This document shows, in pieces, positions 50,560-59,308 of a DNA stretch of 64,000 bases. The notes under the pieces are model-generated. The model was not told the DNA's origin. It saw only the letters and a program-made list of their open reading frames with translations, and searched no databases. The DNA is from a virus: positions 83,761 through 147,760 of the IMG/VR virus record IMGVR_UViG_3300035171_000016. One strand, 5' to 3'. Both the position numbers and the translations under genes were made by a program. Every line of letters starts with the position of its first letter. Within the stretch, counting starts at the first letter, position 1.

Positions 50560-51207
50560 TTAAGAAATATTCCAATAGTATCCATCACAACTTAATATAT
50601 AAGCTTCTCCGCTATTAGCTTGAAAAGTTGTAGTGGCCGAAGATGAATAAATTTTATCATTTTGTTGTCCAGATAAAGTAATAGACGCTCCTCCACGATT
50701 TTTTATCAAATATAAAGTTCCATTTGATGTAGATATAAGAGGCAAAGTCCAAACAACATTTGAAACACCTGTAAAAAAATAACTTTCGTAAGAACTTAAA
50801 GTAATATTTGACGATGTTACTATATATGTTGGCGTAGGCGGTATAGGAGCATTTCCCGTTTGCTGTTGCGTTGAATAGGTTGATGGAAAAATATTAAAAT
50901 CTCCATCTAATACTCTAGTAACCGAACTATTATTATATATTTCTATATCGTAAATAAACGAACCCGCTGGCAAGGACATAGTATCAGATGAAGAGCCGCT
51001 TATAGATAATATTCCACTTTCAAATGGAGATACGGTATTAACATTTAATTTAAGTATATATCCAGTATCTCCCCACTGATTTTTGACATATCCTTGTGCC
51101 GCAAAACCACTAAAATTTATATACGAGCCATTACTATCTTGACAATTTACATATGTCAAAAAACTTGTTCCAGCAACCAAATTAAAATCATAAGAAGTAT
51201 TACTCAT
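50560..51207 (-). CDS. virion fibre-like protein sharing a C-terminal module with 51286-52125
   Basis: A 215-residue beta-rich protein (SYDFNLVAGTSFLTYVNCQ; a BppU-like N-terminal look). Its last 65 residues, VVWTLPLIS, LIKNRG, ANSGEAYILSCDG, YYWNI, are clearly homologous to the C-terminus of the divergent fibre gene. Such shared ends are typical of receptor-binding or trimerisation modules. The late-type motif at 51235-51230 precedes it. Confidence 0.6.
   Translation of the reverse strand: MSNTSYDFNLVAGTSFLTYVNCQDSNGSYINFSGFAAQGYVKNQWGDTGYILKLNVNTVSPFESGILSISGSSSDTMSLPAGSFIYDIEIYNNSSVTRVLDGDFNIFPSTYSTQQQTGNAPIPPTPTYIVTSSNITLSSYESYFFTGVSNVVWTLPLISTSNGTLYLIKNRGGASITLSGQQNDKIYSSSATTTFQANSGEAYILSCDGYYWNIS
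50600..50616 (-). repeat. 17-base inverted repeat, left copy
   Basis: TAAGCTTCTCCGCTATT on the plus strand; perfect inverse of 52069-52085. It lies in the conserved C-terminal module. Confidence 0.85.
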
Positions 51208-51285: not shown

Positions 51286-52125
51286 ATGTCCACAACACAA
51301 GTTCAATGGAGAAGAGGCTCTGGAAGTACCATTAATACGTTTATTGGAGCTTCTGGAGAAATAGTAGTAAATACCGATACTAACCAAATTGTCGTTCAGG
51401 ATAATCTTACAGCCGGTGGATGGACTGGCGCAAGAATTATTGATTTAAATAATATGTCTGGTAAAATTACCAGTGGTATTAATATTACAAATGTAGCAAA
51501 CGTAGTATATCAAACCGGAAACCAAACCATATCTGGAACTAAAGTTTTTAATAGTGCGATTAACGACACTAGTAATTTTCAAACAATAGACTTAAATAAT
51601 AGAATATTATCAGATAGTACGTCTAGTTTATCTATAGATTATAATAATAGGTATTTAGTAGAGCCTATTAGCAATCCTAAAGCCTCTTTAGACTGGGGTA
51701 ACAGAAGATTAAACAATTTAGCTGGCAATGTATCTATAGACTGGGCAACTGGGACTATGCTAGATACATCTGCGGCATTATCAATTAGCTATCAATCAAG
51801 AATATTGTCAGGTTCTTGGTATATACAATCTGGCTTATTTACTCAAGCCATAGCTCTTTCTCCGGCCTTAAATAGTTCATCTATTACTTTATCTAGGTCT
51901 CCATTTTATATAAATAATAGCACGTCAAATGTTACTTGGACTCTTCCTTTAATAAGTAGCTGTACTGGAAAGGTTTATCAAATTAAAAATCGTGGAGCAC
52001 AGGTTACCCTTACTGGCTCATCTAATGATTTATTTTTTGCCCAATATCCTGTAATATCTTTTACAGTAAATAGCGGAGAAGCTTACCAATTAGCTAATGA
52101 CGGAACTTATTGGAATATAATGTAA
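51286..52125 (+). CDS. tail fibre-like protein with DW-x-x-R repeats
   Basis: A 279-residue protein. The N-terminus VQWRRGSGSTINTFIGASGE and a following DTNQIVVQD are the common phage fibre start (FRRGT...GxxGEVTVDTD). Residues 100-180 contain diverged repeats (IDLNNRILSD, IDYNNRYLVE, LDWGNRRLNN, IDWATGTMLD, ISYQSRILSG), a beta-repeat seen in fibres. The last 65 residues match the end of the divergent gene at 50560. It is an isolated plus-strand gene in a minus-strand region, probably a receptor-binding or side fibre. Confidence 0.72.
   Translation: MSTTQVQWRRGSGSTINTFIGASGEIVVNTDTNQIVVQDNLTAGGWTGARIIDLNNMSGKITSGINITNVANVVYQTGNQTISGTKVFNSAINDTSNFQTIDLNNRILSDSTSSLSIDYNNRYLVEPISNPKASLDWGNRRLNNLAGNVSIDWATGTMLDTSAALSISYQSRILSGSWYIQSGLFTQAIALSPALNSSSITLSRSPFYINNSTSNVTWTLPLISSCTGKVYQIKNRGAQVTLTGSSNDLFFAQYPVISFTVNSGEAYQLANDGTYWNIM
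52069..52085 (+). repeat. 17-base inverted repeat, right copy
   Basis: AATAGCGGAGAAGCTTA; perfect inverse of 50600-50616. A second 13-base pair (51985-51997 with 50691-50703) lies in the same modules. Confidence 0.85.
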
Positions 52126-52133
52126 TTAACCTA

Positions 52134-53984
52134 TTAAGGTTTAATTAAAAGGTACCCTCCAACCGTAGGAGTACTTGTAGGTAAATATGGTAAAAATGAC
52201 CACCCAGTAGAAGTCCAATAAAAAGTAGCTGTTCCATTATTAGGCAAAAGAAGGCTAGAACCAATTGGGTTATCGCTTAAATCCGTAGCTTGTACAAAAA
52301 CTGAATTTCCATTATTGTTATTATTTGTAATTGTAAAAGTATTATTAATTATATTTAATCCTACACAATCGGAAGACTTAGGAAGATATATTAACCCGTT
52401 GTTAGCAAAGTGAGTAGATTGTATTGAGGCCGTTTTATAATCTAATAGATTTACAGCATCATAACAACATACATTATAAGCATCAAAAGCATTATAACCA
52501 GCATCGGTAAAAAATGCCGGATTATTTATTGCATTATTTAGTCTTCCGCCTATATTTCCATATAATACTACATTAGTCATATGAGAGGAATCAAAGTTAG
52601 CATATAAACCACCAGAAATATTATTTGACACTAAACAATTTATAACATTATTACCAGCTTCTCCTCCGCCAACTTGCACCGCCGTTGAACAGTTTAATGT
52701 ATTATCATTAATTATAATATTAGCATTTGGATAAGCGAAAGGAATTACTCCAGCGGTACTCCCAAGCGTTGCTCCAGTTCCTCCGTTTACGGTATTATTA
52801 CAAAATCTAATATTGCTACCAGAAGCAGTTAACATAGCAATATCCGACATTGCATTAAAAGTATTATTAGAAATAATATACCAACTATTTGTTCCTGTTC
52901 CTCCGTTAAAAGCTATACCACGCATTCCCCAAATTGTGTTATTCATAAACCAACTAGTTCCATGATTATTTCTAAGTTGATAATATTCTTCAACTTGAGA
53001 CATATTTGTGAACAGGCATCCGGTAGTAGTTTTTGCTGGATATATATTCATTGCCGTAGCATTATTGTCTCTAAATATACAATTAGTAATAAATGCGAAT
53101 CCATTGGTTGAACTACCTACTGATTTCATTACTTCTCCTCGCCAATTTTGAAATATACAATTAGTAAGATTAATATTTTCGTATCTATTAGCGTCTGATA
53201 TATCTACAAGGGCATCATGTGTTTGGTCCCATCCTGTTCCATCCACAACACTAGCTGGTTGAGGAGTATTAACAGAAAAACCATTTTGAAGGCCGCCATC
53301 AATAGTCATACTAGAAAGGCTAAAGTAAATAGATGGGGACGTATCTGGAAGAACAAACATAAAACCTCTATAAACTTCACCAGTAGACCGGCCAGTAAAT
53401 GAAAAATTAGTATATACTCCCCATGCCCCGTCTCCCGTTAATGTTGTTGCTGTTCTGCCCGCGCCAATCCAGTTAACATGATTAGTACAATATATGTCTC
53501 CCATATACCAAGCTCCAAAAGGAGTTCCTAATTGTTGATATGAGATTAAAAGATAATTACCCGCTGGAATAGTTATAGTAGTTCCAGTTCCTAATGCATC
53601 GTGTGCGGCCTGAAAAGCATTGACATTATTAGTTCCTATAATACAATACAATCCAGTTCCGGTAAGCATTGCGGGAGTTGATAAGGTAGCATTTGCCCCG
53701 CTTACAGACGAAAGAGTGGCAACTAAATCTTGATGATTTGGAAGAGTAGTTAAATTACCAGCCCCAAATATTTCAACAGTTTCCCCTAATCTTAAAGATA
53801 CATTTTGAGAAAAGGTGACAGACGTGGAATTACTAGTAGTATTAACGGTTAGGTTAGTGCAGTCTCCAATAGCTCCATATGTAGAAACATCTAATGAAAA
53901 TGCAGGAATAGGAGCAATAATCATTAAAAATATTAACTTTATAATATAGTTAATTATTTTTTTATGAGAAAAAAAATATTTCAT
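52134..53984 (-). CDS. secreted pectate-lyase-like beta-helix protein
   Basis: A 616-residue protein. A basic/hydrophobic N-terminal stretch (residues 8-29, IINYIIKLIFLMIIAPIPAF) looks like a Sec signal or membrane anchor. Then LDVSTYGAIGDCTNLTV, VNAFQAAHDALG and TTITIPAGNYLL follow, the opening of Pectate_lyase_3 / right-handed beta-helix proteins. The rest is Asn/Thr-rich coil repeats (NCIFRDNNA, NNTFNAMSD). The ATG at 53984 overlaps the upstream stop (ATGA); a longer start at 54008 would lie inside that gene. Family members are phage tailspikes or polysaccharide lyases. A signal peptide is unusual for a virion spike, so export is implied. Confidence 0.7.
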   Translation of the reverse strand: MKYFFSHKKIINYIIKLIFLMIIAPIPAFSLDVSTYGAIGDCTNLTVNTTSNSTSVTFSQNVSLRLGETVEIFGAGNLTTLPNHQDLVATLSSVSGANATLSTPAMLTGTGLYCIIGTNNVNAFQAAHDALGTGTTITIPAGNYLLISYQQLGTPFGAWYMGDIYCTNHVNWIGAGRTATTLTGDGAWGVYTNFSFTGRSTGEVYRGFMFVLPDTSPSIYFSLSSMTIDGGLQNGFSVNTPQPASVVDGTGWDQTHDALVDISDANRYENINLTNCIFQNWRGEVMKSVGSSTNGFAFITNCIFRDNNATAMNIYPAKTTTGCLFTNMSQVEEYYQLRNNHGTSWFMNNTIWGMRGIAFNGGTGTNSWYIISNNTFNAMSDIAMLTASGSNIRFCNNTVNGGTGATLGSTAGVIPFAYPNANIIINDNTLNCSTAVQVGGGEAGNNVINCLVSNNISGGLYANFDSSHMTNVVLYGNIGGRLNNAINNPAFFTDAGYNAFDAYNVCCYDAVNLLDYKTASIQSTHFANNGLIYLPKSSDCVGLNIINNTFTITNNNNNGNSVFVQATDLSDNPIGSSLLLPNNGTATFYWTSTGWSFLPYLPTSTPTVGGYLLIKP

Positions 53985-54496
53985 TGTGGAACTAGGCCAC
54001 ATTTCCAACTCATATAAACTCCGCTTACTGAGCTTATACTATTATTGGTACATAGCAAACAACATAGGGTAGTCGAACTAACTGTAAAAGAACTTGTTGT
54101 ATTAGAACATAAATTTGCTACCTGTGCCGAAGCACCCCCAACTAGGGTAGCTCTCATTGCTTCAACTCCATTTGTTAAAATAATAAATGATAGATTTGTT
54201 CCACTATTTACTGCTGGATATGTATAATTTACCCAAAAATTCGTATAAGTGCCGTATGCCAGAGGAAGCTCCATTGATGTTCTTGACGAATTATGAGCCA
54301 TTGAGCCAACTGGGTTTATATAATCTAAACTTGAGTTATTATTAATATTAAAAGAACCACCACCAGTAGAGCCGCTAAACCCTATAGTTTCTCCTTTAGA
54401 TGGTATTTGCGTACTATATATATATCCAGAAAAACTATTAGTACAAATACTCAAAAAAATAACTAAATAAAAATATTTTTTTATTATTTTAAACAT
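53981..54496 (-). CDS. secreted small beta protein, 171 aa
   Basis: A 171-residue protein with a typical signal peptide (FKIIKKYFYLVIFLSICTNS then FSG), followed by a Gly/Asn/Ser/Thr-rich beta domain and several Cys near the C-terminus (LCCLLCTNN). No family recognised. It is sandwiched between two other signal-peptide genes and translation-coupled to the downstream one, so the three are probably exported together. Confidence 0.62.
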   Translation of the reverse strand: MFKIIKKYFYLVIFLSICTNSFSGYIYSTQIPSKGETIGFSGSTGGGSFNINNNSSLDYINPVGSMAHNSSRTSMELPLAYGTYTNFWVNYTYPAVNSGTNLSFIILTNGVEAMRATLVGGASAQVANLCSNTTSSFTVSSTTLCCLLCTNNSISSVSGVYMSWKCGLVPQ

Positions 54497-54514
54497 TTTC
54501 GTTAATAATTAATA

Positions 54515-56572
54515 TTACTGCGTAATTTGAACCCATGTAGCTGATGCTCCCGCTGGGTTTGTTATATTAAGAACATCGCCCCATCTTAACATAAAACTTC
54601 CTCCTGTTTGTGGAGTGGCAACCGTTCTATTATTTATACCAATACCACTATGAGAAGTACTTAATAAATTAAATTGCATTAATGGAGCATAATAGTTTGT
54701 ATAATTCATTGTTCCGCTAACGGCAACTGCTGTTGATATACCGTAGTTGGTCTGGAAGAACGGATGCTCAACTGGCCAAGGGATTTTATTCATCAGATTT
54801 ACTGCTGCCTGTTGATATACAACATTGTTTGTAGGGTTAGCCGGATGGACATTATCAATACTAATAATATTCATCAGACTGTCATTACAATATCTCCATT
54901 CCGGCGATGAGTAAGCCAATAGCGGCCAATCGGCTACCCGAGCGTTATACTCCACCAAATTAAAATTGTTCGACAGTTGAAATCCAGCAGCCGATGAACC
55001 GAATCTCATAGTCTGTCTAAATATCACATCCCAGCCATTTGTTACGCATTCGGTATAGTAATTTGTAAAATAGCTGAACGTATTTGAAGGCGCAACCCAG
55101 CCCCCCGCATTTGCCATTACCTGATTTCTGCCTAAGTCTGTAATGACTTTCCTGTTCAGGAACTTTGATTTAGGAAGCAGAAATAAATTATCATGCTTCA
55201 TCGAAATGGTGGAACCATTATTAAAGGCGATGTTGGATATGGTGGTAAAACCAGAGCCGCCATTGGCGTTATTGATTGGCAATACTTCTTTGCCTGCTGC
55301 TGTCCAGTTTCCGCTATTTCCGTAGTAGTAGTAGTAAATAAACTGAGACTTGGATGATTGCGAGGTGCCTTGAACGATGGTTCCATCAATAGCCGAGTTA
55401 TCCATGATTGAGTCCCCTTCAATGCAAACAGCAGTATCTCCATCGAATAGCCAAGACGCGATTGCATAAGAATCGGCTAACATATTGGTGTCATATCCAC
55501 CATTAAACAGTAATACAGATTCTACTTCAATTTGCGATGCAAAGTTTCCAAGTGCTAGGATGGAAGCATTGTCCAAAGCTAGATTAAGTAAGTTGTACCC
55601 GTTAGTCGTGGTGATAGCAGAAATACCGGCATTTGTGAAAACTAATTGCTTATAGCTACCGCTCCAACCAGCGATGTTACCATCATATCCCGCCATGTAA
55701 TGATTAAGGCCGTCCGTTGTTAAGGTATATGTATGACGTAAAAGAGGTAGAATATTGATTACTCCAGACTGACCCGCTGGGCTCCAGCCATTATCATTAA
55801 GAATGGATGCCGAGTTTGTATACTGACCATAATAGGTTCCGATTGGATTCCCTGCGGCAAAAGGAACAATTTGACCCCAAAAACTGCAAAACCCTTCAGG
55901 ATTTTCGTAGGTTAAGTCGTCATTATTATTGGTGTTTTTTAGTGACCAAACAAGCGAGTGATAAGAGCTATTCTGCGATGACTCCATTGCCGTTCCTGGC
56001 TGACGAAAGGTTACGGCAATAGTGAAGTTAGTTCCAACAGAGCATGGAAACCTAAGAAATACATTGGCATTTGTAGTACCATCTACGTTATTAAATAACT
56101 TTATACCAAATGAAGTTTGAACCGCACCATTATTTGTATAAGGATTCCCAAAATAAGATAAATTTGTACCATTTGGATTCCATCGTGCCGGAAAAATAAG
56201 CGCATCATTCAGAGCTCTTCCGCGTTTGATTATTTCATTTTGGAAACCAACTGCCCAATCTATACTAAGAGCATCATTTACTCCCTGACGTTTTAGCCAA
56301 GTTAATGCATTTGTATCATTATACGGCTGAGAAGCATTTGTAATTCCCGGGCCAACATTTAAATTAGTACCAGATACGTTAAACTGTCCCACGTTTGGTG
56401 TTAAAACACTACTTGCAGGAATTCCGCTATCTACGACCCCGCCAGTACCATTACCTCTAAAAAGATTAGTAGTAGAAGGAAAGCCACCATTAGGAATATA
56501 TGCCGCAGTACCAGTTAAACAGATACTTAGTAAAGCTACTAAACCAAAAATTTTCTTGAAATTATTAAACAT
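54515..56572 (-). CDS. secreted SGNH-type hydrolase with LamG-like region
   Basis: A 685-residue protein with a clear signal peptide (FKKIFGLVALLSICLTGTAA). Residues 165-370 look like a concanavalin/LamG-type beta-sandwich. An SGNH (GDSL-like) esterase follows, with block I CIEGDSIMDNS near residue 380, a block III-like ITDLGRNQ, and block V SIDNVHPANP with the Asp and His near residue 590. Such enzymes remove acetyl or other ester groups from polysaccharides. Sampled stretches near 55200 have about 45 percent GC, well above the surrounding genes. That points to recent acquisition or strong expression. A late-type motif precedes it at 56581-56586. Confidence 0.7.
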   Translation of the reverse strand: MFNNFKKIFGLVALLSICLTGTAAYIPNGGFPSTTNLFRGNGTGGVVDSGIPASSVLTPNVGQFNVSGTNLNVGPGITNASQPYNDTNALTWLKRQGVNDALSIDWAVGFQNEIIKRGRALNDALIFPARWNPNGTNLSYFGNPYTNNGAVQTSFGIKLFNNVDGTTNANVFLRFPCSVGTNFTIAVTFRQPGTAMESSQNSSYHSLVWSLKNTNNNDDLTYENPEGFCSFWGQIVPFAAGNPIGTYYGQYTNSASILNDNGWSPAGQSGVINILPLLRHTYTLTTDGLNHYMAGYDGNIAGWSGSYKQLVFTNAGISAITTTNGYNLLNLALDNASILALGNFASQIEVESVLLFNGGYDTNMLADSYAIASWLFDGDTAVCIEGDSIMDNSAIDGTIVQGTSQSSKSQFIYYYYYGNSGNWTAAGKEVLPINNANGGSGFTTISNIAFNNGSTISMKHDNLFLLPKSKFLNRKVITDLGRNQVMANAGGWVAPSNTFSYFTNYYTECVTNGWDVIFRQTMRFGSSAAGFQLSNNFNLVEYNARVADWPLLAYSSPEWRYCNDSLMNIISIDNVHPANPTNNVVYQQAAVNLMNKIPWPVEHPFFQTNYGISTAVAVSGTMNYTNYYAPLMQFNLLSTSHSGIGINNRTVATPQTGGSFMLRWGDVLNITNPAGASATWVQITQ

Positions 56573-56619: not shown

Positions 56620-57009
56620 TTATTTAGCAGCCGACATAATTTCTAAACCAATTTTTTGCTTTTCTTTAGAAAGTTGCTGAGTAGTAAATTTAGTCGGAGT
56701 TTTATATGCAAGAGCATACTTATCAAACTCAACTAATAACTGTTTCTTTAAACGAGTAATATCAGAAATAGGAATTAGGCCCGCGCGGATTGCATGGTCA
56801 CGAATTTCGGCGGTATTGAAGGATTCTAGCTTAGATACATATTCGGCCTTATCTAAAGTTCCATATTTACCAAGTCCATCCGCTCCTAGTAGAATTTCTA
56901 ACTTTGTTGAGCCTACCGGCTGTTCGATTAAACGTCCATCAGTCTGCTCTAGGTCTGAAAGCTTGGTAATCTTTTTAGCGGTCTTAGATGATTTATTTGA
57001 ATTTTTCAT
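56620..57009 (-). CDS. hypothetical structural-region protein, 129 aa
   Basis: A basic, helical 129-residue protein with GC-rich codons like those of the capsid genes, suggesting high expression. KLESFNTAEIRDHAIRAGLI looks like a SAP/HeH-type helical segment, and the C-terminus is a lysine-rich coil. Probably a head assembly or DNA-associated virion component; not identified. Confidence 0.52.
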   Translation of the reverse strand: MKNSNKSSKTAKKITKLSDLEQTDGRLIEQPVGSTKLEILLGADGLGKYGTLDKAEYVSKLESFNTAEIRDHAIRAGLIPISDITRLKKQLLVEFDKYALAYKTPTKFTTQQLSKEKQKIGLEIMSAAK

Positions 57010-57140: not shown

Positions 57141-58073
57141 CTATGATACTTTATCGTTAACTATAGGCACGGGCATATATTGGTTTATTTCTTCTGATTT
57201 TAATATCTTGAATAATTCAGGATGTTTTAATTTTTGTTCTTCGATATATTTAAGAATTTCTGGATTTTCCCATTTACGAGCGAGTTTAGGAACAGGAAAC
57301 TGGCGGAGATAGTCTATAATAATGGCGGCGGCAATATCTTGTATAGCAAAATAATAACATCCATTTTTCATTTTAGTATCCTTACTCTTTTTTACTGAAT
57401 ACCCATTTTTATAAATGTTATTTAGCTTACTATGAATCCATTCGACTACAGGAGATATGGCCGCTACAAAACCTATAGATATTCTGTTTTGATTTTTATA
57501 TTTAAATATCCATCCATCACCATCTATGGCACCAATAATATAAGCATATTCTAAATACTCATTATTTATATTGGGCGGCTGTAATGTATATGTTTTTCTA
57601 GGAGTAATATTAAAATGTCTAAATAAATCTTCGTGCCACTTTTTAGCTTTATGTATGGCAATATAACAAACTTCCATTAAATCATCACTTTTATATTTTT
57701 TTCTAGTATGAACCACAACCCTTCCGTTAAAACCTACTTCTTTTTTAAAATTATGCAATAAATCTACGTCTTTAGATGATAAATTTATTTGAAATAAACT
57801 TCCGTTTGTTCCTAGATTTCCGTCTGTTGCTATAAATCCTCCATAATAACAATTAATTAGATTTAAATTTTTCCAATAATCATTATTTATGGTATATTTT
57901 GAATCTCTATATCCACTTACTAAACCTAGTTTAATAGATTTTTTTTGTAATGAAGAAGCGGTTCTGTTTGGAAAATATTGTATCATTTTATTAAAACTTA
58001 ATTTTCCAGTTAATTCTTTTAGTTTATTTTCTTCTTCTTTAGACCAATTATTATATGTTAATGTAGCTCTCAT
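57141..58073 (-). CDS. LAGLIDADG homing endonuclease
   Basis: A 310-residue protein. An N-terminal Myb/SANT-like helix unit (WSKEEENKLKELTGK, NRTASSLQKKSIKLG) should bind DNA. Two LAGLIDADG helices follow, CYYGGFIATDGNLG near residue 76 and YAYIIGAIDGDGWI near residue 175, each with the catalytic Asp. It is AT-rich, unlike the capsid genes around it. It sits just behind the capsid terminator and has a TATAAT-type -10 box 5 bases before its ATG, giving it expression independent of the late genes. Probably a free-standing mobile insert. Confidence 0.85.
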   Translation of the reverse strand: MRATLTYNNWSKEEENKLKELTGKLSFNKMIQYFPNRTASSLQKKSIKLGLVSGYRDSKYTINNDYWKNLNLINCYYGGFIATDGNLGTNGSLFQINLSSKDVDLLHNFKKEVGFNGRVVVHTRKKYKSDDLMEVCYIAIHKAKKWHEDLFRHFNITPRKTYTLQPPNINNEYLEYAYIIGAIDGDGWIFKYKNQNRISIGFVAAISPVVEWIHSKLNNIYKNGYSVKKSKDTKMKNGCYYFAIQDIAAAIIIDYLRQFPVPKLARKWENPEILKYIEEQKLKHPELFKILKSEEINQYMPVPIVNDKVS

Positions 58074-58120: not shown

Positions 58121-58149
58121 ATAAAAAACTCCAGCTTTTAACTGGAGTT
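58121..58149 (-). terminator. intrinsic terminator after the capsid gene
   Basis: On the minus strand AACTCCAG (58149-58142), a 7-base loop, CTGGAGTT (58134-58127) and then a T-rich run. The perfect 8-bp stem lies 20 bases after the capsid stop. It closes the highly expressed head operon. Confidence 0.88.
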
Positions 58150-58168
58150 TGTGATAAACTTTATATTA

Positions 58169-59308
58169 TTATAGGCACAATCCTAATACAGCCCTTGAAT
58201 CTAGGGCAACTCTGCCTTCCCGTACCTGTGCCCAGAAACCAATCTTGTCAGAGCGAAGCGGGAACGAATCGTCAACATTGACGGTTACAGTACCACCAGT
58301 ATCGCCGCCAGTTTCAACTGCGCGAGCAAATGCTTTGCGAGTTAGGTCAACACCTACGCAAATTTCGTTGGTAGAGGTGCTGAACGTGCTGCCAGCCGGG
58401 TTAATGTTACCAGTAGCATAAACACCGAATAGGTTGTTATACTTACCACCGATACCAAGTTCGTTTAGGTCGGTAATGTTGATACCGAAGATGTCAGACG
58501 TACCAGCAGATTCGTAAATCTGTTGACGAACGGCATCAGGTAGAGCAACCGCAGTCGTATTAGTATAGTTAGCAACCGTAGCACCAACAGCCGTCGGGCC
58601 TAGCTTGGTGTTCATCGGGTTGTAAGCAAACGCACGAATCTGAGCTTTTACTTCGGGAGATACGAATAAATCCGTAATACCTTTTGAGTAAGGAGCAGTA
58701 GGAGTACCGTTAGCGTATGAGGCGTTAATTCTGCGAGCCTTAGTAATTAACTTGCTTAGGTCATCAAGAAGGAAAACACCAGTTGTGCTAGCAGCAGCTA
58801 CGTTACCAGTAGCAGTACCATTAACTAGCTGAGTAGCACCACCAAGAGCGGCTAGAATAACAGCCCATCCTTGTAGTTCCTGCTTAACTAGAATTTCGTT
58901 AATCATTCTCTCTACAGAGTTAGAAAGAATCGGTAGGTTGGACTTACGAGCGAATTTCTTACGGAACGATACAGCAGAGCTAATATCGTAGTAGGAAACG
59001 CGAGCTTCGTCGCTAGAATACATTTCGGAAGTCGGAAGACCGCCACCCATTGACGAACTCCAAACCTGAACAGCGTTTACGCCTTCACCGTGGAGGAAAT
59101 CAAGAGGAATTGACGGAGCCTCGTCTTCACCGAACGCATAGTCATTATAAATTAATGACGCCGTACCGGACTGCATTAGAACGAGTTGGATAACAGGCCA
59201 AATACCGGCAGCAAAAGCTTCGGCGGCTTCCATAGAGACCTGACCGTTGCGGCTACCCATAGCCTTGACTAGTTCAATGTGTTCAGGTGTATTTTTTAGT
59301 TCAATCAT
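58169..59308 (-). CDS. major capsid protein (HK97-fold)
   Basis: A 379-residue protein. Features typical of HK97-fold capsids are an N-terminal helix, an E-loop region around residues 90-120 (YYDISSAVSFRKKFARKSN), a spine helix region (ERMINEILVKQELQGWAVI), a P-domain strand (KGITDLFVSPEVKAQIRAF) and the final FWAQVREGRVALDSRAVLG stretch. Codons are the GC-richest of the window, fitting the most abundant virion protein. It is followed by a strong terminator and preceded by decoration and protease-scaffold genes, the standard head module. Confidence 0.87.
   Translation of the reverse strand: MIELKNTPEHIELVKAMGSRNGQVSMEAAEAFAAGIWPVIQLVLMQSGTASLIYNDYAFGEDEAPSIPLDFLHGEGVNAVQVWSSSMGGGLPTSEMYSSDEARVSYYDISSAVSFRKKFARKSNLPILSNSVERMINEILVKQELQGWAVILAALGGATQLVNGTATGNVAAASTTGVFLLDDLSKLITKARRINASYANGTPTAPYSKGITDLFVSPEVKAQIRAFAYNPMNTKLGPTAVGATVANYTNTTAVALPDAVRQQIYESAGTSDIFGINITDLNELGIGGKYNNLFGVYATGNINPAGSTFSTSTNEICVGVDLTRKAFARAVETGGDTGGTVTVNVDDSFPLRSDKIGFWAQVREGRVALDSRAVLGLCL

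What the first reader, a model, noticed from the sequence alone, without database searches (positions are those of the whole stretch)
52134..56572. Three-gene cassette of Sec-exported proteins with an SGNH esterase and a beta-helix lyase-like protein
All three genes begin with convincing signal peptides, which virion tail proteins normally lack. The first encodes an SGNH-type hydrolase with a LamG-like part, the third a pectate-lyase-type beta-helix. The middle one is unknown, Cys-containing and translation-coupled. The first gene is clearly GC-richer than its surroundings and has a late-type promoter motif. The set could de-esterify and trim host surface or extracellular polysaccharide at lysis, or block superinfection. 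I know of no described phage system of this form.
Basis: partly seen in the sequence, partly recalled or inferred. Interest (0 to 1): 0.75.

Follow-up and report, generated by a model that had tools for sequence, protein, structure and literature searches.

The report
Phage cassette of exported fibre-like proteins
A large uncultivated tailed phage carries, in the spot where its relatives keep surface-fibre genes, three neighbouring genes whose proteins start with export signals and look like sugar-polymer-modifying enzymes and binders, suggesting that it secretes part of its fibre toolkit into or out of the host instead of building it into the particle.

Summary
On the minus strand, 56572-52134 carries three ORFs (685, 171 and 616 aa), each with a convincing Sec leader and no other membrane segment. 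Gene 1 has a complete SGNH motif set (S388/N483/D573/H576) after a LamG-like stretch. Gene 3 has right-handed beta-helix rung periodicity. Genes 2 and 3 overlap by ATGA. No database recognises any of them.

About 170 relatives, found through the capsid gene, show that the cassette sits in the lineage's variable fibre slot. Signal-peptide genes occupy that slot in only three phages, and in runs: 3 here, 7 in a 172-kb relative (two fibre-head/LamG/beta-helix triplets plus one), 2 in a third. All seven keep their leaders, so export looks rare but repeated and selected.

The late-promoter motif is not enriched. High GC is confined to the enzyme core of gene 1, whose ends are phage-like: a chimera. 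Most likely use: late Sec export of glycan-binding/hydrolysing proteins acting on host glycan around lysis (about 40%). Superinfection exclusion, late virion decoration, or captured host genes remain open. Structure predictions failed for lack of homologues, and the host is unknown.

The parts
54515..56572 (-). Gene 1, 685 aa: Sec leader (aa 1-24), fibre-like N-part, LamG-like stretch (about aa 165-378), SGNH-type hydrolase (about aa 380-600), C-terminal head-like part
   Evidence: no Pfam, NCBIfam, phage or plasmid match and only a non-significant PDB hit
56501..56572 (-). Predicted signal peptide of gene 1 (MFNNFKKIFGLVALLSICLTGTAA)
   Evidence: hydropathy/-3,-1 rule, no SignalP available
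54773..55435 (-). SGNH-type core of gene 1: GDS S388 (55411-55409), GRN N483 (55126-55124), D573 (54856-54854), H576 (54847-54845); codons 401-500 are the second-highest GC3 window of 491 in the genome
53981..54496 (-). Gene 2, 171 aa: Sec leader related to that of gene 1 (13 of 27 positions identical, gap-free), small N/T-rich domain with 5 Cys in the mature part
54428..54496 (-). Predicted signal peptide of gene 2
52134..53984 (-). Gene 3, 616 aa: Sec leader (aa 1-30, 53984-53895), start of pectate-lyase-like type (DVSTYGAIGD ... NAFQAAHDAL ... TIPAGNYLLIS), right-handed beta-helix
   Evidence: ATGA overlap with gene 2
52335..53162 (-). Beta-helix rung region of gene 3 (motifs such as NLTNCIF, FITNCIF, FMNNTIW, IISNNTF, mostly 23-31 residues apart)
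56620..57009 (-). Conserved small virion-module gene that marks the upstream edge of the variable slot
   Evidence: homologue in 77 of the first 84 relatives
51286..52125 (+). Mtd_N-type fibre gene without leader, convergent with gene 3; shares its C-terminal domain with 50560-51207
50560..51207 (-). Fibre-adaptor gene (phrog_1084 / L-shaped tail fibre assembly type) without leader; downstream side of the slot
58169..59308 (-). Major capsid protein by position and conservation; used to find relatives
58126..58150 (-). Intrinsic-terminator-like hairpin after the capsid gene; no other minus-strand one before the end of gene 3
   Evidence: consensus match only

Best explanation
The cassette is a set of fibre/spike-type proteins that the phage sends through the host Sec pathway instead of assembling into the virion in the cytoplasm. 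Steps shown by sequence: three adjacent genes, each with a cleavable-type leader, sit in the lineage's fibre slot inside the structural module; gene 1 carries an SGNH active-site motif set, gene 3 a beta-helix; relatives carry unrelated runs of leader-bearing fibre-head, LamG-like and beta-helix proteins in the same slot. Steps inferred: expression with the neighbouring late genes; export to the periplasm (and outside at lysis); LamG-like and head domains bind host surface or matrix glycan, the SGNH domain removes ester groups (probably O-acetyl) and the beta-helix protein binds or cleaves the backbone; the result is that progeny leave a cell whose debris and matrix no longer trap them. Gene 1 looks like a chimera: a foreign enzyme core set between a leader/N-part and a C-part of phage composition.
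For: Leaders and no further TM. SGNH motifs in canonical order and context; the loose pattern occurs in 21 of 20,000 shuffles of gene 1. Beta-helix rungs. Slot context from about 170 relatives. Parallel runs of leader-bearing genes: G001/L036 with 7 genes including two duplicated triplets, all leaders kept at 30-48% protein identity; L046 with 2. Fibre-like composition of genes 1-3 (9-12% N, low charge) as in the neighbouring leaderless fibre proteins. Genes 2 and 3 are Cys-rich (3.4%, 2.05%) against 0.56% for the structural module, as expected for proteins folding in an oxidising compartment. Only one region of gene 1 is compositionally foreign.
Against: No enzymatic, export or timing data. 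Gene 1 and gene 3 domains are below every HMM cut-off; AF2 without homologues failed (pLDDT 30 and 38) and Foldseek gave nothing significant. The Cys content of the phage's other proteins averages 1.43%, so gene 3 is only moderately above it and gene 1 is below it. Most relatives have no such genes, so the function is dispensable for the lineage. In a diderm host, Sec alone leaves the proteins in the periplasm until lysis.
Confidence: 0.4

Rival explanations
1. Superinfection exclusion or receptor masking: the exported proteins bind or alter the glycan receptor of the infected cell so that further particles do not adsorb, in the manner of T5 Llp but with glycan as the target.
For: T5 encodes an exported receptor-jamming lipoprotein, and such proteins are thought to stop secondary infection and unproductive binding to lysed cell fragments (PMC9586334); receptor binding and receptor masking with the same specificity is an economical use of fibre domains; the cassette lies in the fibre slot.
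Against: Exclusion proteins are described as expressed early (PMC9586334), whereas this cassette lies in the structural module; no lipobox of standard form; three or seven large proteins are more than exclusion needs.
Confidence: 0.18
2. Virion components after all: the leader is a membrane or assembly device, or exported trimers attach to particles during or after lysis as spikes.
For: Fibre-like composition and slot; relatives fill the slot with leaderless fibre genes; some leader-bearing proteins of relatives resemble phage fibre heads (by eye).
Against: Tailed-phage particles assemble in the cytoplasm; leaders are kept across all seven copies in G001; ordinary leaderless fibre genes lie next to the cassette.
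Confidence: 0.17
3. Recently captured host secretory genes: leaders are leftovers, the slot is a landing site, and function is host-like (for instance modifying environmental glycans) or transient.
For: Foreign GC3 in the gene 1 core; no shared homology among the three phages' sets; rare across relatives.
Against: Ends of gene 1, and all of genes 2 and 3, have phage composition; genes 1 and 2 share a related leader; G001 duplicated whole triplets and kept the leaders; no cellular relative found, though those scans reach close relatives only.
Confidence: 0.17
4. Chance hydrophobic N-termini or mis-called starts.
For: Hydropathy rules used here are cruder than SignalP.
Against: Three in a row (P = 0.0035), seven in a row in a relative, canonical leader form.
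Confidence: 0.04

Closest known systems
Tailspike depolymerases with beta-helix fold (P22, Phi92 colanidase, Klebsiella K1 lyase)
   Same: Beta-helix protein of similar size encoded among phage structural genes; those folds top the (non-significant) Foldseek list
   Different: Tailspikes have no signal peptide and carry a virion-binding N-domain; gene 3 starts with a Sec leader and has no detectable sequence relation
Soluble phage capsule/matrix enzymes (Bacillus phage phiNIT1 levanase and poly-gamma-glutamate hydrolase)
   Same: Phage-coded soluble enzymes that act on host extracellular polymer (reference in PMC6966330)
   Different: The phage GH32 enzymes are reported to lack a signal peptide (PMC4595243); I know of no leader-bearing cassette of them in a fibre slot
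T5 Llp and Cor-type superinfection-exclusion lipoproteins
   Same: Exported phage proteins acting at the host envelope on the receptor (PMC9586334)
   Different: Small lipoproteins binding an outer-membrane transporter; expressed early; no enzyme or glycan domains
SGNH/GDSL hydrolases (carbohydrate esterases)
   Same: Complete S-N-D-H motif set in gene 1
   Different: No HMM match; joined to a LamG-like part and a phage-composition C-part behind a leader
Leader-bearing runs in phages G001 (L036/L165/L166) and L046
   Same: Same slot of the same virion module, runs of leader-bearing fibre-head, LamG-like, beta-helix (G001) or fibre-like (L046) proteins
   Different: No sequence homology with the window's three proteins at E 0.1; no SGNH domain seen

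Membership tests
SGNH hydrolase superfamily | Ser in GDS block I, Asn in GxN block III, Asp and His in DxxH block V, in order and spacing | tested here: met
   S388, N483, D573, H576 with hydrophobic strand before GDS and HP...A context after DxxH
SGNH hydrolase superfamily | Profile match to GDSL/SGNH families | tested here: not met
   No Pfam match even at E 10 for the excised domain, no NCBIfam match at E 1. Filed as SGNH-type by motif only
SGNH hydrolase superfamily | Alpha/beta/alpha flavodoxin-like fold | tested here: inconclusive
   AF2 on a single sequence failed, pLDDT 29.6
Pectate-lyase-like right-handed beta-helix | Repeated rungs of about 22-27 residues with Asn/Cys ladders | tested here: met
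   11 rung motifs against 1.7 expected, mostly 23-31 residues apart
Pectate-lyase-like right-handed beta-helix | Match to PF12708 or related profile | tested here: not met
   No match for gene 3; the G001 counterparts do match PF12708 above cut-off
Phage tailspike (virion depolymerase) | Leaderless N-terminal virion-binding domain | tested here: not met
   N-termini are Sec-type leaders in all three
Phage tailspike (virion depolymerase) | Present in purified virions | not testable with these tools
   needs proteomics
T5 Llp/Cor-type superinfection exclusion | Signal peptide II lipobox, small lipoprotein | tested here: not met
   LSIC in genes 1 and 2 has Ile at -1, not G/A/S; mature proteins are about 147-661 aa; gene 3 has no Cys at the site
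T5 Llp/Cor-type superinfection exclusion | Blocks adsorption of related phage | not testable with these tools
   needs phage assay
Sec signal-peptide-I proteins | Charged n-region, hydrophobic core, small residues at -3/-1, no further TM | tested here: met
   no SignalP was available

The most novel reading that the evidence does not exclude
A lineage of large tailed phages repeatedly converts its variable fibre locus into a secretion locus: fibre-head, glycan-binding and glycan-cleaving domains are given Sec leaders, duplicated as cassettes and exported, so that the phage changes the glycan surface or matrix around its host rather than its own particle.
Probability: 0.35. Interest if true: 0.75.

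Novelty: new variant of a known kind. Interest (0 to 1): 0.55.

Why it matters
Phage glycan-active enzymes are thought of as virion spikes that open the way in. A locus that swaps between virion fibres and exported fibre-like enzymes would show that phages also evolve the same domains for work outside the particle: exit, spreading through a matrix, or closing the cell to competitors. Here are three natural cases in one capsid-defined lineage whose other members have a leaderless slot, so the question can be put to direct test.

Tried and rejected
Homologue searches: genes 1 and 3 in IMG/VR and sequenced phages, gene 3 in GTDB genomes, gene 1 in plasmids, all without a relative; the IMG/VR and GTDB scans use exact 8-residue seeds and reach close relatives only. 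Gene 2 was searched only against families, PDB and the fetched loci. A profile search of the G001 beta-helix family in GTDB and IMG/VR found only G001 itself, so no host or donor could be named. Structure prediction of gene 1 and gene 3 without homologues gave unusable models; the Foldseek list for gene 3 has no significant hit and is not used as evidence. Gene 2 against the G001 373-aa protein: no relation. Late-promoter motif: rejected. High expression as the cause of gene 1 GC: its codon use is not that of MCP/tube/decoration (LLR -0.146 against 0.13 to 0.33, though those three built the reference), so an imported core fits better.

Full report
Setting. The window is bases 83,761-147,760 of a 147,760-base IMG/VR virus record. 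Its minus strand carries a virion module. It runs prohead-protease-like 61839-59989, decoration-like 59905-59354, major capsid 59308-58169, homing endonuclease 58073-57141, a small conserved gene 57009-56620, the three genes in question, fibre genes, connectors, tail tube 47606-46431 and tape measure 44203-37334. Some names rest on position and conservation only.

Check of the observation. The three ORFs exist at the stated place. Gene 3 starts at ATG 53984, overlapping the gene 2 stop (ATGA). All three N-termini have the form of Sec signal peptides, and no other hydrophobic segment is present. In the whole record 6 of 179 ORFs pass the same leader test and three of these are this run; the run has P = 0.0035 under shuffling. 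The leaders of genes 1 and 2 agree at 13 of 27 positions without gaps, against at most 10 for gene 1 and 8 for gene 2 with any other leader in the lineage, and 0 of 100,000 region-wise shuffles reach 13. They probably arose by duplication.

Domains. Gene 1 carries GDS (S388), GRN (N483) and DNVH (D573, H576) in contexts typical of SGNH hydrolases; a loose form of this pattern appears in 21 of 20,000 shuffles of the same protein. A LamG-like stretch (about aa 165-378) was recognised by eye only. Gene 3 begins like pectate-lyase-type proteins and has 11 beta-helix rung motifs against 1.7 expected. Gene 2 is a small N/T-rich protein with 5 cysteines in its mature part. No Pfam, NCBIfam, PDB, sequenced-phage or IMG/VR match supports any of these assignments, and structure prediction without homologues failed.

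Composition. Gene 1 is 40% G+C, but the capsid, decoration and tube genes are 40-47%. Within gene 1 the excess lies in the enzyme half: GC3 is 0.49 at codons 401-500, second of 491 windows in the genome, while codons 1-200 and 601-685 have 0.19-0.23, the phage norm. Codon choice is not that of the capsid set. A foreign enzyme core between phage-like ends is the simplest reading. The 'late promoter' motif is at chance level upstream of genes. Shine-Dalgarno sites are also near chance level and G is depleted upstream of starts, a pattern known to me from Bacteroidota (established knowledge; the host is not shown).

Relatives. Capsid searches gave 84, then 138, then about 170 loci. They share protease, decoration, capsid and small gene; between the small gene and the connectors lies a variable slot filled mostly with leaderless fibre-like genes, collagen-like repeats, Mtd-type and adaptor genes, or nothing. 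Leader-bearing genes in the slot occur in only two others. G001 (172 kb; L036, L165, L166) has seven in a row: 254, 255, 609, 602, 373, 257 and 637 aa. 254 is related to 373, 255 to 257, and 609 to 602 and 637, so a triplet of head-like, LamG-like and beta-helix proteins was duplicated; the beta-helix proteins match PF12708, while 'head-like' and 'LamG-like' are readings by eye. The 257-aa protein's leader (MVKILNLIFLFLLSTQCFSQQ) was also read by eye; it fell below the script's threshold. L046 has two, beside an Mtd-like fibre gene that shares its C-terminal domain with the window's. In its close relative L167 (80% capsid identity) the same place has one long Mtd-type fibre and no leaders. The window's proteins are not detectably homologous to those of G001 or L046; the likeness is of place, leader and fold class. 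Many loci are cut by contig ends, so the true frequency may be higher.

Mechanism. Shown: leaders, motifs, slot, repeated runs. Inferred: late expression with neighbours (no minus-strand terminator-like site lies between the small gene and the end of gene 3, consensus only), export, glycan binding, de-esterification and backbone cleavage or binding, release of progeny from debris and matrix. The Cys-rich genes 2 and 3 (3.4% and 2.05%, structural module 0.56%, other ORFs 1.43%) fit folding outside the cytoplasm but do not prove it. Superinfection exclusion, virion decoration and host-gene capture stay open, with the weights given.

Comparison with the known. Virion tailspikes share folds but lack leaders. 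The Bacillus phage GH32 enzymes are reported without signal peptide (PMC4595243). T5 Llp is exported but is a small early lipoprotein that jams a protein receptor (PMC9586334). Library searches for phage-coded secreted depolymerases, or leaders on fibre proteins, found no matching description; this is a search of open papers only.

Verdict. A real feature, a new variant of known phage glycan-active and exported proteins, with a plausible but untested role.

Noticed in passing
G001 (IMGVR_UViG_3300021440_000014), C1:43092-52115 minus; L036:17185-21087, L166:8482-17505: Seven consecutive leader-bearing genes in the fibre slot, including a duplicated head/LamG-like/beta-helix triplet: a larger version of the window's cassette and probably the better case to study.
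   Followed up: partly
window 51286-52125 (+) and 50560-51207 (-): Two divergent fibre genes share an 85-aa C-terminal domain in opposite orientation (DNA identity 60%), a possible source of domain exchange.
   Followed up: partly
window 57141-58073 (-); L025:11208-12092: A LAGLIDADG-type endonuclease sits between the capsid and small genes; a 44% identical one occupies the same place in relative L025.
   Followed up: no
G000:C1:43849-44646 (-), L004:3849-4646: A 265-aa beta-helix/NosD-like protein (PF13229, PF05048) with a hydrophobic N-terminus lies far from the virion genes; perhaps another exported or anchored beta-helix protein.
   Followed up: partly
whole record G000: Shine-Dalgarno sites near chance level and strong G depletion upstream of starts, as I know it from Bacteroidota.
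   Followed up: partly
G000:C1:21784-22359 (-): A 191-aa gene with the highest GC3 window of the genome (0.50), likely a recent import.
   Followed up: no
IMG/VR: The capsid defines a group of more than 540 contig hits, the longest seen 203 kb, without any match among 50,697 sequenced phage records.
   Followed up: partly
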